From Halobellus limi (GTDB lineage: Archaea; Halobacteriota; Halobacteria; Halobacteriales; Haloferacaceae): 64,000 bases of DNA. The DNA lies in assembly GCF_004799685.1 (NCBI RefSeq), contig NZ_CP031311.1:2294001-2358000 (forward strand), given 5' to 3'. Under the pieces are notes generated by a model. It had not been told where the DNA came from. It did not search any database and saw only the letters and a list, made by a program, of their open reading frames with translations. This document shows, one piece after another, positions 58,975-64,000 of this stretch. Made by a program: the position numbers and the translations under genes. The first letter of the stretch is position 1. Each line of letters begins with the position of its first letter.

Positions 58975-60852
58975 ATGGGATACGTCGTCCGGATGCCGAA
59001 GCTCGGCCTGGAGATGGAGAACGGGACGCTCTTGGAGTGGTTCCTCGAAGAGGGAGAGACGGCCGAGGAGGGCGCGGTGGTCGCGGAGATCGAGTCCGAG
59101 AAGACGACGGCCGAGGTCGACGCCCGCGAGGGCGGCGTGCTCCGCCGGACCTTCCTCGAAGCGGGCGAGACCGTCGATCCCGGAACCCCGATCGGGATCA
59201 TCGCCGGAGCGGACGAAGACATAGAGGGGCTGCTGGCGGAGGTCGAATCCGAACTGGGAGACGTCGCCGGGGGCGAGGAGTCGGACACTACGAGCGAGCC
59301 GGCCGGAGAATCCACGGAGACGCCGGAGGCTTCGACGTCGGGAACGGCTAGCGAGACGACCGGTTCGTCGGGCGCGTCCGGCTCCGCCGCGAAAGCCAGT
59401 CCTCGCGCGGAGAAGCGAGCCGACGAGTTGGACGTCGACCTGACCGGGGTCGAGGGGACCGGACCGCAGGGCGCGATCACCGCCGAGGACGTCGAAGCGA
59501 GCGCGGACGCGACGAGCGGCGACGAGGCGTCCGGTGACGCCGGCGGCGGCGACGTCCGGGCGACCCCGCGCGCCCGGAAGCGCGCGGAGGACCTCGGCGT
59601 CGACCTCGCGGCCGTGAGCGGGTCGGGACCGCAGGGTGCGATCACCGAGGAGGACGTCGAAGCGCGCGCGGAGTCCGCCGACGAGGGGGCGGAAGCGCAG
59701 GCCGACGACGGACCGGGTGCGACGCGGACGCTCCGCGAGGAGCGCGCGTTCGACGGGATGCGCCGGACGATCGCGAAGCGCCTCAGCGAGAGTTACCGCG
59801 AGGCCGTCCACGTCACCGAACACCGGGAGGTCGACGCCGAGTCGCTGCTCGCCGCCGCCGACGCGGCCGAGGAGGCACTCGACGCCGACGTGTCGATGAC
59901 CGACGTGTTGCTGCTGGCGCTCTCGGACGCCCTCGACGAGCACCCCGCGTTCAACGCGACCTTCGAGGACGACACTCACCGGCTCTACGAGGAGCACAAC
60001 GTCTGTCTGGCCGTCGACGTCGAACAGGGGCTCGTCACGCCGGTCGTCCCCGACGTCGGGTCGAAGTCGCTGTCGGCGCTCGCGACCGACCGACGCGAGA
60101 TCGTCCAGCGTACGCTGGAGGGCGACTACACGATGGCGGACCTCCAGGGCGGGACGTTCACCGTCACCAACCTCGGCGTCCTCGGCGTGGAGTCCTTCGA
60201 CCCGATCATCAACCCGCCCCAGATCGGGATCCTGGGCGTGAACGCGCTGCTGGAGCGCGTCGTCCTGGACGACGACGGGACGCCGGGGACGCGCCGCGTG
60301 CTCCCGCTGGATCTCTCCTTCGACCACCGGGTCGTCGACGGCGCGGACGCCGCGCGCTTCCTGGGGACGCTCGCGGAGAATATCGAAGACCCCTGGGATC
60401 TCCTCCCCGAGGAAGTCGCGGCCGCTCGCGAGGGAGGTGAGGATCGGAGTCCCGAGGCGACAGCGGAGTCGGCCCCCCGCGAGGCCACCGCGCGCTCTAT
60501 GGAGGGAATGTCCGGGACCGTCAGCACCCAGGGCACCGAACAGCGCTACGGAGACGGATCCGAGCCCTCGCCGGTCGATCTCTTCCTCGGCTCGCTCGCG
60601 GCGTGCCTCTCGCTGTCGATCCGCTATCAGGCGGAGATGCGCGACGTGGGCGTCGGCGACATCGACGTCGAGACCGACGCCCGACCGGAGTCAGGTTCGG
60701 TGGAGTCGATCGACATCACGGTGCGACTGGACGCCCCGGAGGCCGACGAGTCGACGCTCGAACGGGTCGTTGAGTACGGCGAACGGAGCTGTCACGTCGC
60801 CGAACTCCTGCGCGAGGACCTCCCCGTCGAGTTGTCCTGGGAGCGACGGTAG
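58975..60852 (+). CDS. 2-oxoacid dehydrogenase E2 (dihydrolipoyl acyltransferase) fused to a C-terminal OsmC domain
   Basis: This 625-residue protein comprises a lipoyl domain (1-80, carrier Lys43 in EIESEKTTAEV), two E3/E1-binding domains (about 138-175, ASPRAEKRADELDVDL; about 197-232, ATPRARKRAEDLGVDL), the catalytic acyltransferase domain (about 250-480; active site DHRVVDG near 449), and an extra OsmC-like domain (about 485-625). The OsmC part has SPVDLFLGSLAACLSLSIRY and YGERSCHVAELL, which supply the two redox cysteines of that family. E2 moves acyl groups to CoA. The fused peroxidase-like domain suggests thiol protection. It converges on the AcoX and E1 genes. Confidence 0.88.
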   Translation: MGYVVRMPKLGLEMENGTLLEWFLEEGETAEEGAVVAEIESEKTTAEVDAREGGVLRRTFLEAGETVDPGTPIGIIAGADEDIEGLLAEVESELGDVAGGEESDTTSEPAGESTETPEASTSGTASETTGSSGASGSAAKASPRAEKRADELDVDLTGVEGTGPQGAITAEDVEASADATSGDEASGDAGGGDVRATPRARKRAEDLGVDLAAVSGSGPQGAITEEDVEARAESADEGAEAQADDGPGATRTLREERAFDGMRRTIAKRLSESYREAVHVTEHREVDAESLLAAADAAEEALDADVSMTDVLLLALSDALDEHPAFNATFEDDTHRLYEEHNVCLAVDVEQGLVTPVVPDVGSKSLSALATDRREIVQRTLEGDYTMADLQGGTFTVTNLGVLGVESFDPIINPPQIGILGVNALLERVVLDDDGTPGTRRVLPLDLSFDHRVVDGADAARFLGTLAENIEDPWDLLPEEVAAAREGGEDRSPEATAESAPREATARSMEGMSGTVSTQGTEQRYGDGSEPSPVDLFLGSLAACLSLSIRYQAEMRDVGVGDIDVETDARPESGSVESIDITVRLDAPEADESTLERVVEYGERSCHVAELLREDLPVELSWERR

Positions 60853-60947
60853 GTCGGGAGCCTCCTCGGGTCGGGGGAGCGACGGTAGGTCGGGAGCCTC
60901 CTCGGGTCGGGGAGCGACGGGAGGTCAGAGCCGTCCACGGGTCGAGG
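60841..60947 (+). repeat. Tandem 35/36-bp repeats at the 3' end of the E2 gene
   Basis: GAGCGACGGTAGGTCGGGAG begins unit 1 (60841-60876), which includes the E2 stop codon, and an almost identical unit 2 (60877-60911). A diverged third unit starts at 60912. The units are duplications of the gene's end in the convergent spacer. Confidence 0.7.
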
Positions 60948-60971
60948 GACCGTCGGCGAGTCAGCGATCCG

Positions 60972-61967
60972 CTACCGCCGTTCGACGGCGCGAGCGTCCG
61001 CCGCGAGCGGGGCGGCCTCGAAGACCGCGTCGAAGTCGACCAGGCGGGGGCCGTCCGATACGGGCCGAACCCCGATCTCCGCGTTCTGCACTTCGAGTTC
61101 GCGCTCGCCGTCGACGCTGACGACGGCCTCCCCGACCTCGAACCCGTGTTCTTCGTCGGGAGCGAGATGCGACCACTCGGCGACGCCGACGCGCTCGACG
61201 ACGCCGGGGACGGTGATCGCCCCGACCGTCCGCTCGGCGCCCGCGTCGAGTTCGAGCGCGACGCCGCGACCGTCGTCGGGGTCGACGCGGGTGAGCGCGC
61301 CGGCCACGCCGGAGAGGCCGACCTCGCCGCGACCGGCGCGGGAGACGCCGCCGCCGAGGAAGTCGTCGGGGTCGAGCACCGCGCGCGTCCCGACGAACGA
61401 CTGGTCGACGACGCCGACGGTCGCGAGCCCCCGGATCGAGCGGCCGTCGTCGACGCGGGCCTCGACCATCGTGTGCCGGTACGTGACCGCCCCGGGGTCG
61501 ACGGCGTCGGTGGCGAGGAAGGCCGCCGCCGCGCCCGCGACGGTGCCGTCGACGGGCGTCGGAACGACGTTGTTCGTTCCGGTGGAGACCGCGAGCACGG
61601 GGACGTCCCCGATCTCGACCGCGAGGTCGCGGGTCGTGCCGTCGCCGCCGAAGACGACGACCGCGTCGACGCGCTCGCGGAACGCCTCGGCGGCGCGCCG
61701 GGTGTCCGCGCTCGTGTCGTCGACTGGCGTATCGAGGAGTCGCACGTCCGATCGGTCGGCCTCAGCGACGGTCCGCTGGCCGATCTCGCCGCCGTCGGGT
61801 GCGACGAGGATATCGACCGGGTCCTCCGCGAGGTCGACGCCCGCGAGGACGCACTCGGCGGCGCGGCGCTTCCCGTAGGTGTCGCTGACGGTCGCGCCGC
61901 CGGTCAGGCGGCGGACGTCCCGCCCGGCCGCGGGGTTGACGAGGAGGCCGATTGTCGGTGCGGCCAC
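60972..61967 (-). CDS. AcoX/NAD-kinase-like protein
   Basis: This 331-residue protein has the NAD-kinase fold of the AcoX group: IGLLVNPAAGRDVRRLTGGA, DAVVVFGGDGTTRDLAVEIG and VSTGTNNVVPTPVDGTVAGA. AcoX proteins are encoded in acetoin dehydrogenase operons, but their biochemical role is unsettled. Here it follows E1 beta by 3 bp on the same strand, which supports an acetoin-type or related 2-oxoacid dehydrogenase. The start is a GTG at 61967. Confidence 0.85.
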   Translation of the reverse strand: MAAPTIGLLVNPAAGRDVRRLTGGATVSDTYGKRRAAECVLAGVDLAEDPVDILVAPDGGEIGQRTVAEADRSDVRLLDTPVDDTSADTRRAAEAFRERVDAVVVFGGDGTTRDLAVEIGDVPVLAVSTGTNNVVPTPVDGTVAGAAAAFLATDAVDPGAVTYRHTMVEARVDDGRSIRGLATVGVVDQSFVGTRAVLDPDDFLGGGVSRAGRGEVGLSGVAGALTRVDPDDGRGVALELDAGAERTVGAITVPGVVERVGVAEWSHLAPDEEHGFEVGEAVVSVDGERELEVQNAEIGVRPVSDGPRLVDFDAVFEAAPLAADARAVERR

Positions 61968-61970
61968 CCC

Positions 61971-62984
61971 TCAGACCACCTGGCTGATCGCGTCGCGGAC
62001 GTCGTCGCCGTCCGGGACGACTTCGTCCTCCAGCGGCGTGCTGAACGGGATGTGCGTGTCAGGCACGCCGACGCGCTGCAGCGGCGCGTCGAGGCTGAAG
62101 AACTCGTTTTCGACCATCCGGGTGATTACCTCCGCATGGACGCCGTAGGAGAGGGGGCTCTCGTCGGCGACGACCATCCGGCCGGTCTTCCGGATGCTGT
62201 CGGCGAGCGTGTCGGTGTCGAGCGGGTAGAGCGACCGGAGGTCGATGACCTCGACGCTCGTCTCGCCCGCGAGGTCGTCGGCGACGTCGAGCGACTCGCC
62301 GACGAGGCGCTGGGTCGCGACGACGGTGACGTCCTCGCCCTCCCGTTCCACGCTCGCCTCGCCGATCGGGAGCGTGTACCCGGGGTCGGTCGGGACCTCG
62401 CCCGACTGCTCGTACATCATCTTGTTCTCGAAGAAGAACACCGGGTCGTTCGAACGGATCGCGGACTTGAGAAGCCCCTTCGCGGCCGCCGGGGTGCCGG
62501 GCGTCACGGCCTTCAGCCCCGGGAAGTGCGCGAACCAGGTGTGCGGCGTCCCAGAGTGCTGACTCGCCGCGCCCATCCCGCCGCCCTCGGTCGTCCGGAC
62601 GGTGACGGGCATCTCGATCTTCCCGCCGAACATGTAGCGCATCTTCGACATCTGGTTCATGATCTGTTCGCCGGCGACGCCGAGGAAGTCGGAGAACATC
62701 ACCTCGACGACGGGGCGAGAGCCGGTGGCGGCCGCGCCGACGCCCGCGCCGACGAATCCGGCCTCGCTGATGGGCGTGTCGCGGACGCGTTCGCCGCCGA
62801 ACTGCTCGAAGAGGCCGTCGGTCACGTCGAGGACGCCGCCGAACTTCCCGACGTCCTCGCCCATCACGAAGACGTCCTCGTCCTGTTCCATCTCCTCGCG
62901 GAGCGCCGCGCGGATCGCCTCGCGTACGGTCAGCGTCTCGGTTCGGTCGGTGGATGCGGTCTCGGGTTTGGTGCTCATCGTCAT
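61971..62984 (-). CDS. 2-oxoacid dehydrogenase E1 component, beta subunit
   Basis: This 337-residue subunit pairs with E1 alpha in the thiamine-diphosphate-dependent decarboxylase of an acetoin/pyruvate/branched-chain dehydrogenase complex. Motifs: VFVMGEDVGKFGGVLDVTDG, RVRDTPISEAGFVGAGVGAA, FFFENKMMYEQSGEVP and VIDLRSLYPLDTDTLADSIR. The ATG at 62984 overlaps the E1 alpha stop by 4 bp (62981-62984). A second in-frame ATG lies two codons on. The acoX-like gene follows 3 bp after its stop. Confidence 0.92.
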   Translation of the reverse strand: MTMSTKPETASTDRTETLTVREAIRAALREEMEQDEDVFVMGEDVGKFGGVLDVTDGLFEQFGGERVRDTPISEAGFVGAGVGAAATGSRPVVEVMFSDFLGVAGEQIMNQMSKMRYMFGGKIEMPVTVRTTEGGGMGAASQHSGTPHTWFAHFPGLKAVTPGTPAAAKGLLKSAIRSNDPVFFFENKMMYEQSGEVPTDPGYTLPIGEASVEREGEDVTVVATQRLVGESLDVADDLAGETSVEVIDLRSLYPLDTDTLADSIRKTGRMVVADESPLSYGVHAEVITRMVENEFFSLDAPLQRVGVPDTHIPFSTPLEDEVVPDGDDVRDAISQVV

Positions 62985-64000
62985 TCACCTCCCGCTCCGT
63001 CGGCCCGGAGCCGGCTCGCGAACTGTTCGATCTCGGGGACCGGTTCGCCGAACATGTCGTCGTACGCCTCCGAGGGCTCCGGCAGGTCCGCGTCGCGGGC
63101 GTACTCGACTGCGGCCTCGATCTCGGCCTGCACCTCCGAGCGCATCTCATCGAGTTCCTCCTCGGTCAGGTCGCCGCGGTCGATGAGGCGCTCGGCGAAC
63201 GTGTCGATCGGGTCGCGGTCGCGCCACTGCTGGACGTCCTCCTCGTCGCGGTAGGGTTCGGGATCGCCCTCGAAGTGGCCGCGGTAGCGGTAGGTGTCGG
63301 CCTCGATGAGCGTCGGCCCCTCGCCGTTGCGTGCGCGGTCGCGGGCCTCCGCGACGGCCTCGTTCACGGCCGTGACGTCCATCCCGTCGACGGTGAAGCC
63401 CGGGATGTTGTACGACTCCGCGGTCTCGCTCAGGTTCTCGATGTTGTGCTGTTCGTCGGCGGGCGTCCCCTCTCCGAAGTGGTTGTTCTCGACGAGGAAC
63501 ACCGCAGGGAGGTCCCACGTCGCCGCGAGGTTGATCGCCTCGTGGACCTGCCCCTGCGCGACGGCCCCGTCGCCCAGGAACGCGAGCGCGACGCGGTCTT
63601 CGCCCTTGAACTGGCTCGTCAGCGCGGCCCCGGTCGCCAGCGGCGGGCCGGCCCCGACGATGCCGTTCGCGCCGAGCATGTTCGCCTCGACGTCGGCGAT
63701 GTGCATCGAGCCGCCCTTGCCGTTGCAGTAGCCGTCGCGCCGGCCGAACAGTTCGGCCATCATCCGGTTCGGATCGAGCCCCTTCGCGATGCAGTGGCCG
63801 TGGCCGCGGTGGGTGCTCGTGATGTAGTCCTCCTCGTCCAGCGCGGCGCAGGCACCGACCGCGACCGCTTCCTCGCCGATGTAAAGGTGTACGAACCCCG
63901 GGATCTCTCCGTCGGCGAAGAGGTCACCCGCGGTGCTGTCGAACTCCCGTATCGTCAGCATCCGTCGGAGGATCTCGCGCCTCCCGTCGGTATCTTCGAT
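62981..64000 (-). CDS. 2-oxoacid dehydrogenase E1 component, alpha subunit (5' end beyond window)
   Basis: This is the thiamine-diphosphate-binding subunit with the motif GDGAVAQGQVHEAINLAATW ending in ENN, and substrate-channel elements RGHGHCIAKGLDPNRMMAEL and GGSMHIADVEANMLGANGIV. The frame is open to the window edge, and the residues before the ATG at 63961 (EDTDGRREILRRMLTIREFD) match the usual E1 alpha N-terminus, so the true start is outside the window. It leads the E1 alpha - E1 beta - acoX unit. Which 2-oxoacid or acetoin it uses cannot be fixed from sequence. Confidence 0.9.
   Translation of the reverse strand: MEDTDGRREILRRMLTIREFDSTAGDLFADGEIPGFVHLYIGEEAVAVGACAALDEEDYITSTHRGHGHCIAKGLDPNRMMAELFGRRDGYCNGKGGSMHIADVEANMLGANGIVGAGPPLATGAALTSQFKGEDRVALAFLGDGAVAQGQVHEAINLAATWDLPAVFLVENNHFGEGTPADEQHNIENLSETAESYNIPGFTVDGMDVTAVNEAVAEARDRARNGEGPTLIEADTYRYRGHFEGDPEPYRDEEDVQQWRDRDPIDTFAERLIDRGDLTEEELDEMRSEVQAEIEAAVEYARDADLPEPSEAYDDMFGEPVPEIEQFASRLRADGAGGE

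What the first reader, a model, noticed from the sequence alone, without database searches (positions are those of the whole stretch)
58975..60852. Dihydrolipoyl acyltransferase (E2) fused to an OsmC-type peroxidase domain
The E2 frame does not stop after the acyltransferase domain. It continues through about 140 residues that keep both OsmC-family cysteines (SLAACLS and ERSCHVAELL). OsmC proteins are hydroperoxide reductases, and in bacteria they can be recycled by lipoylated E2 plus dihydrolipoamide dehydrogenase. Fusing the peroxidase to the lipoyl carrier would place both in one complex. The protein also has two tandem E3/E1-binding domains and sits opposite E1 alpha, E1 beta and an AcoX-like kinase.
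Basis: partly seen in the sequence, partly recalled or inferred. Interest (0 to 1): 0.7.

Follow-up and report, generated by a model that had tools for sequence, protein, structure and literature searches.

The report
Archaeal acyltransferase with built-in OsmC domain
A salt-loving archaeon carries the swinging-arm core protein of a 2-oxoacid-dehydrogenase-type complex with a complete OsmC (two-cysteine, peroxidase-family) domain at its end; the fusion is real, shared by many haloarchaea and kept by selection, but whether the extra domain destroys peroxides is unproven because the usual helper residues of that chemistry are missing.

Summary
Window 58975-60852(+) is one 625-aa gene: lipoyl domain, two E3-binding domains, 2-oxoacid acyltransferase core, short disordered linker, then a complete OsmC domain (about 123 aa). 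It is not a frameshift: 28 of 293 sampled Halobacteriales genomes, in five families, carry the same E2-OsmC fusion, mostly in the same order (E2-OsmC facing AcoX-like, E1beta, E1alpha). Both cysteines are invariant in 42 aligned domains, and the OsmC part is under purifying selection as strong as the E2 core.

E2 keeps its lipoyl lysine and HxxxD motif, so a lipoyl-driven thiol cycle is plausible and has precedents (Ohr; Trichomonas OsmC). But the Arg and Glu of the Ohr/OsmC peroxidase active site are missing, as in YhfA, which has no known activity. At least three lineages lost the E2 core and the lipoyl lysine yet kept a constrained OsmC domain, so its function does not strictly need the arm in cis. 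Best reading: a dehydrogenase E2 with a two-cysteine thiol-redox module fed by the lipoyl arm, probably but not certainly a peroxidase. New architecture variant of a known coupling; no description found in the open-access papers searched.

The parts
58975..60852 (+). E2-OsmC fusion gene, 625 aa
   Evidence: single ORF; homologues with the same domain order in 28 of 293 Halobacteriales genomes; Halobellus rarus ortholog 83% identical
58987..59202 (+). lipoyl domain, residues 5-76, lipoyl lysine K43 at 59101-59103
   Evidence: Pfam PF00364; K invariant in all E2-OsmC fusions with a full-length lipoyl domain
59389..59496 (+). first E3/E1-binding domain, about residues 139-174
   Evidence: Pfam PF02817, two stretches; boundaries of this copy inferred from its repeat with the second copy and from model helices
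59554..59661 (+). second E3/E1-binding domain, residues 194-229
   Evidence: Pfam PF02817; 38 of 45 fused homologues have two copies
59740..60405 (+). 2-oxoacid dehydrogenase acyltransferase core, residues 256-477, with HxxxD motif H451/D455
   Evidence: Pfam PF00198, 218.9 bits; H and D conserved
60442..60480 (+). disordered linker between E2 core and OsmC domain, residues 490-502
   Evidence: pLDDT below 50 in the full-length model
60481..60849 (+). complete OsmC domain, residues 503-625 (Pfam match 526-620)
   Evidence: Pfam PF02566 67.9 bits; pLDDT 95.7 model; Foldseek to 1ml8 E 2.4e-10, TM 0.88
60604..60606 (+). C544, position of the peroxidatic cysteine (AACLS)
   Evidence: invariant in 42 of 42 domains
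60790..60792 (+). C606, position of the resolving cysteine (SCHV)
   Evidence: invariant in 42 of 42 domains
60972..61967 (-). AcoX-like NAD-kinase-fold protein, convergent
   Evidence: Pfam NAD_kinase 40.4 bits; syntenic in most relatives
61971..62984 (-). E1 beta subunit
   Evidence: Pfam Transket_pyr and Transketolase_C; NCBIfam PRK09212 330 bits over its cut-off 321
62981..64000 (-). E1 alpha subunit; its start lies about 15 bases beyond the window end
   Evidence: Pfam E1_dh 323 bits; extension read in L094

Best explanation
This is the E2 subunit of a haloarchaeal 2-oxoacid/acetoin-dehydrogenase-type complex that carries a two-cysteine OsmC-fold thiol-redox module at its C-terminus. Shown by sequence and model: a lipoyl arm on flexible linkers, an intact acyltransferase core, docking domains for E1 and E3, and a complete OsmC fold on a short flexible tether with both cysteines invariant. 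Inferred: dihydrolipoyl made on the arm by E1/E2 turnover (or by Lpd and NADH running backwards) reduces the Cys544-Cys606 disulfide of the OsmC domain, which itself removes organic hydroperoxides or a related oxidant formed near the complex, so the complex protects itself using its own electrons. Lpd is supplied in trans. The thiol-redox role is more secure than the peroxidase role.
For: All parts are present and over Pfam cut-offs; the OsmC fold is complete at pLDDT 95.7 and matches OsmC, Ohr and YhfA structures, including Ohr entries described as interacting with dihydrolipoamide, 6ebd and 6ebg (Z 12.8). The E2-OsmC linker 490-502 and the lipoyl linker 99-137 are disordered in the model, so the arm could reach the OsmC domain. 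Both cysteines are invariant in 42 domains. dN/dS against Halobellus rarus is about 0.17 for OsmC and 0.18 for the E2 core. The lipoyl Lys is kept in all fusions with a full-length lipoyl domain, and E2 HxxxD in all but one (L077 reads HN). In two genomes a separate OsmC gene lies beside E1alpha of the same cluster (L067, L068). LipA, lipoate-ligase-family and Lpd genes exist in the genome. Reduction of Ohr and OsmC by lipoylated proteins is reported (PMC8945050), and Trichomonas OsmC works with an incomplete glycine decarboxylase complex (title cited in PMC10332631).
Against: The Ohr/OsmC catalytic Glu is V/I/P in all 42 domains and the Arg is not conserved, the YhfA pattern. Lipoyl-OsmC proteins that lost the E2 core also lost the lipoyl lysine, yet keep a constrained OsmC domain, so the module can serve without a cis arm. 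Some close E2s lack the OsmC tail (L049, L053, L056, L057), so it is dispensable. No activity was measured.
Confidence: 0.45

Rival explanations
1. The domain is a YhfA-like thiol module that is not a peroxidase: a redox switch that senses oxidation and tunes the complex, or a reductase of other disulfides such as bis-gamma-glutamylcystine, the disulfide of the main haloarchaeal thiol.
For: Catalytic Arg and Glu absent, D/E one residue nearer the Cys as in E. coli YhfA; top Foldseek hit is 1ml8, listed as the crp-region protein, which fits yhfA beside crp; YhfA proteins have no established activity. Haloarchaea hold about 4 mM gamma-glutamylcysteine (PMC7278568).
Against: Selenoproteins with a UxxT motif are listed for an OsmC-like protein of COG1765 (YhfA) (PMC9312934) and the closest NCBIfam model for all 42 members is the OsmC-related (seleno)protein model, which suggests active redox catalysis; no disulfide substrate is known.
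Confidence: 0.3
2. The OsmC domain lets the complex run without E3 and NAD: peroxide or another oxidant reoxidises dihydrolipoyl through the OsmC disulfide, replacing Lpd.
For: No lpd gene lies in the fused cluster; the genome's two full-scoring Lpd genes are elsewhere.
Against: 38 of 45 fused E2s keep two E3-binding domains, and one fused cluster contains Lpd (L077). Unfused relatives also lack a local Lpd.
Confidence: 0.1
3. The OsmC domain is mainly structural: an oligomerisation module that changes how E2 trimers assemble, with the cysteines forming a structural disulfide.
For: OsmC and Ohr are homodimers (PMC8945050); the domain sits directly after the E2 C-terminus.
Against: Both catalytic-position cysteines and the surrounding motifs are invariant also in proteins without E2, and the tail was lost several times without loss of E2.
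Confidence: 0.1
4. Sequencing or assembly artefact joining two genes.
For: None found.
Against: Same fusion in 28 of 293 genomes from five families, with no internal stops.
Confidence: 0.005

Closest known systems
Ohr/OsmC thiol peroxidases and lipoylated E2 with Lpd (separate proteins in bacteria)
   Same: OsmC fold, two conserved cysteines, reduction by lipoylated proteins reported
   Different: Here one polypeptide; the catalytic Arg and Glu are absent
Trichomonas hydrogenosomal OsmC with incomplete glycine decarboxylase complex
   Same: OsmC working with a lipoyl-bearing complex for peroxide detoxification (title only seen, cited in PMC10332631)
   Different: Separate proteins, eukaryotic organelle, different complex
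E. coli YhfA (PDB 1ml8) and NCBIfam NF041052 OsmC-related (seleno)protein
   Same: Best structural match and closest NCBIfam model; two Cys without Arg and Glu in YhfA
   Different: Stand-alone proteins; sequence identity about 16-17% to 1ml8; NF041052 cut-off not reached
Haloferax volcanii OADHC-3 (oadhAB3) type complexes
   Same: Haloferax profundi locus L053 has the same E2/AcoX/E1beta/E1alpha order, E1 74-75% identical; oadhAB3 is the H. volcanii pair most like acetoin E1 (PMC8305020)
   Different: Haloferax E2 lacks the OsmC tail; that L053 equals oadhAB3 was not tested; substrate unknown in both

Membership tests
OsmC superfamily (PF02566) | Pfam model above gathering score | tested here: met
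   67.9 bits against 27.5, positions 1-99 of 100
OsmC superfamily (PF02566) | OsmC alpha/beta fold | tested here: met
   pLDDT 95.7; 1ml8 TM 0.88, Z 15.6; 1lql Z 15.8
OsmC superfamily (PF02566) | two conserved cysteines | tested here: met
   C544 and C606 invariant in 42 of 42
Ohr/OsmC peroxidase subfamilies | catalytic Glu 10 residues before the peroxidatic Cys and catalytic Arg | tested here: not met
   position -10 is V 37, I 3, P 2; Arg at -20 in 6 of 42, and no Arg 11-30 residues before Cys in 23 of 42; E. coli OsmC has R39, E49, C59
Ohr/OsmC peroxidase subfamilies | NCBIfam OsmC subfamily cut-off | tested here: not met
   TIGR03562 23.1 bits against 85.8
Ohr/OsmC peroxidase subfamilies | lipoyl-dependent peroxidase activity | not testable with these tools
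   needs an enzyme assay
YhfA subfamily | two Cys without the catalytic Arg and Glu | tested here: met
   definition from PMC8945050
YhfA subfamily | tree placement with YhfA | tested here: inconclusive
   long branches, poor support
E2 acyltransferase of 2-oxoacid dehydrogenase complexes | lipoyl domain with lysine, E3-binding domain, catalytic core with HxxxD | tested here: met
Acetoin dehydrogenase complex | acetoin E2 equivalog (PRK14875) cut-off | tested here: not met
   63.4 bits against 307
Acetoin dehydrogenase complex | acetoin as substrate | not testable with these tools
   needs an assay; related H. volcanii complexes have no identified substrate except OADHC-1 in isoleucine breakdown (PMC8305020, PMC3235422)

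The most novel reading that the evidence does not exclude
A self-protecting dehydrogenase: an E2 that reduces peroxides with its own lipoyl electrons through an Arg/Glu-less OsmC domain, giving the YhfA-type OsmC class its first assignable physiological reductant; after loss of the dehydrogenase several lineages kept the OsmC module alone on a lysine-less lipoyl scaffold.
Probability: 0.35. Interest if true: 0.7.

Novelty: new variant of a known kind. Interest (0 to 1): 0.5.

Why it matters
A natural fusion is strong evidence that lipoyl-bearing dehydrogenases and OsmC-fold thiol proteins work together, here in archaea whose 2-oxoacid dehydrogenase complexes mostly have no known substrate. It offers a clean test of what YhfA-type OsmC domains, which lack the known peroxidase residues, actually do, because the likely reductant is on the same chain.

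Tried and rejected
Frameshift or assembly error: rejected. Chance match to OsmC: rejected. Fusion outside Halobacteriales: 247 genomes spread over the phylum gave E2-fused frames only in Halobacteriales. Two long frames (G486, 553 aa; G049, 505 aa) and three from the order search (G286, G161, G169) looked like read-through ahead of a stand-alone OsmC, judged by an arginine-rich upstream and a Met close to the domain. Bacterial phyla were not searched. Plasmid collection: only one distant solo copy. Tree placement of the domain among Ohr, OsmC and YhfA: long branches, inconclusive. Terminator/promoter scan between the convergent genes: nothing, of little weight in archaea. The original Ohr-lipoyl and Mycoplasma OsmC papers are not in the library.

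Full report
Observation. The gene at 58975-60852(+) is one uninterrupted 625-codon frame. Pfam places a lipoyl domain at 5-76, two E3-binding domains, a 2-oxoacid acyltransferase core at 256-477 and an OsmC domain at 526-620 with 67.9 bits against a cut-off of 27.5. AlphaFold on 42 haloarchaeal OsmC domains gives the last 124 residues a complete OsmC fold with mean pLDDT 95.7; the closest solved structures are 1ml8 (TM 0.88, Z 15.6), 1lql (Z 15.8), 2egt and 2onf. The full-length model shows disordered linkers at 99-137, 183-191, 238-246 and 490-502, so both the lipoyl arm and the OsmC domain are flexibly tethered.

Recurrence. In 293 Halobacteriales genomes, 28 have the OsmC domain in one frame with the E2 core, in five families; I checked each against its locus. 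Named carriers include Halobellus rarus (83% over the protein), Natronococcus, Natrinema, Haloterrigena, Halogranum, Halobiforma, Natronocalculus and Halegenticoccus. The usual order is E2-OsmC facing AcoX-like, E1beta and E1alpha. In the E2 tree 42 of 50 rows are fused, the label needs four changes, and some unfused E2s (L053, L057, L075) nest among fused ones, which fits an old fusion with later losses. No E2-fused frame was seen outside Halobacteriales in a phylum sample; bacteria were not searched.

Conservation. Both cysteines are invariant in 42 of 42 domains. dN/dS between the window gene and the H. rarus gene is about 0.17 for OsmC, 0.18 for the E2 core, 0.31 for the lipoyl domain and 0.33 for the linkers with binding domains (my ratios).

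What speaks against a ready peroxidase label. E. coli OsmC has Arg39 and Glu49 before Cys59; YhfA has neither. In the fused family the Glu position is V, I or P in all 42 and the Arg is not conserved; D or E lies one residue nearer the Cys, as in YhfA. Reviews state that YhfA proteins lack the Arg and Glu and are uncharacterised (PMC8945050), or except them from the peroxidases (PMC4069020). On the other side, selenoproteins with a UxxT motif are listed for an OsmC-like protein assigned to COG1765 (YhfA) (PMC9312934), and the NCBIfam OsmC-related (seleno)protein model is the one that all 42 members match, though below its cut-off for the window protein.

Derivatives. Where the domain is not fused to E2 it often follows a lipoyl-like domain alone (L064, L066, L070, L071, L072) or a truncated one (L065, L069). 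In these the lipoyl lysine is replaced by T, A, G or H, or is not alignable. They sit in at least three places inside the fused OsmC tree, so the E2 core was lost repeatedly while the OsmC domain stayed under constraint (dN/dS about 0.19-0.22 in two Natrialbaceae-like pairs, 0.43 in L065/L069). Four of them lie divergently beside 2-oxoacid:ferredoxin oxidoreductase-like genes, which I identified by reading the sequences, not by a family search. In L067 and L068 a separate OsmC gene lies beside E1alpha of the same cluster, while their E2 has lost HxxxD. In L073 E2-OsmC remains with a degenerate lipoyl region.

Setting. The genome has a canonical complex with its own Lpd at C1:1.55 Mb, plus LipA and two lipoate/biotin-ligase-family genes, so lipoylation and E3 in trans are available. 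The fused complex's substrate is unknown; acetoin models are not met, and related Haloferax complexes have no identified substrate except OADHC-1 in isoleucine breakdown (PMC8305020; PMC3235422).

Judgement. The architecture is real, old within haloarchaea and selected. A lipoyl-fed thiol-redox role for the OsmC domain is the best reading; peroxidase action is likely but unproven, and the lysine-less derivatives show the domain can serve without the arm in cis. Searches of the open-access library for OsmC with dihydrolipoamide fusions, fused OsmC domains, haloarchaea or lipoyl domains returned no listed paper describing this fusion, judged from titles, abstracts and a few passages; databases of domain architectures were not available, so it may be catalogued elsewhere.

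Noticed in passing
window 60839-60956: A 36-bp unit repeated about 3.3 times spans the stop codon of the fused gene and fills the gap to the convergent AcoX-like gene.
   Followed up: partly
L067 9808-10350, L068 9837-10379, L059 8754-9344: E2 proteins with intact lipoyl lysine and E3-binding domains but an acyltransferase core that has lost the HxxxD residues.
   Followed up: partly
L071 6001-6753: A lysine-less lipoyl-OsmC gene sits in opposite orientation between genes that read like A-type ATPase subunits.
   Followed up: no
L064, L066, L070, L072: Lysine-less lipoyl-OsmC genes lie divergently beside what look like 2-oxoacid:ferredoxin oxidoreductase alpha/beta genes in three genera, sharing a 245-296 bp upstream gap.
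   Followed up: partly
L003 796-2034: The window's genome encodes a 412-aa protein with two OsmC domains in tandem.
   Followed up: no
L094 8830-9261: Downstream of E1alpha, beyond a peptidase-like gene, lies a gene that reads like the cobalamin-binding subunit of methylmalonyl-CoA mutase, a hint of branched-chain acyl-CoA metabolism nearby.
   Followed up: no
L078 5996-6304 (Halobacterium noricense plasmid NZ_CP089469.1): A short solo OsmC-like frame without any annotated feature.
   Followed up: no
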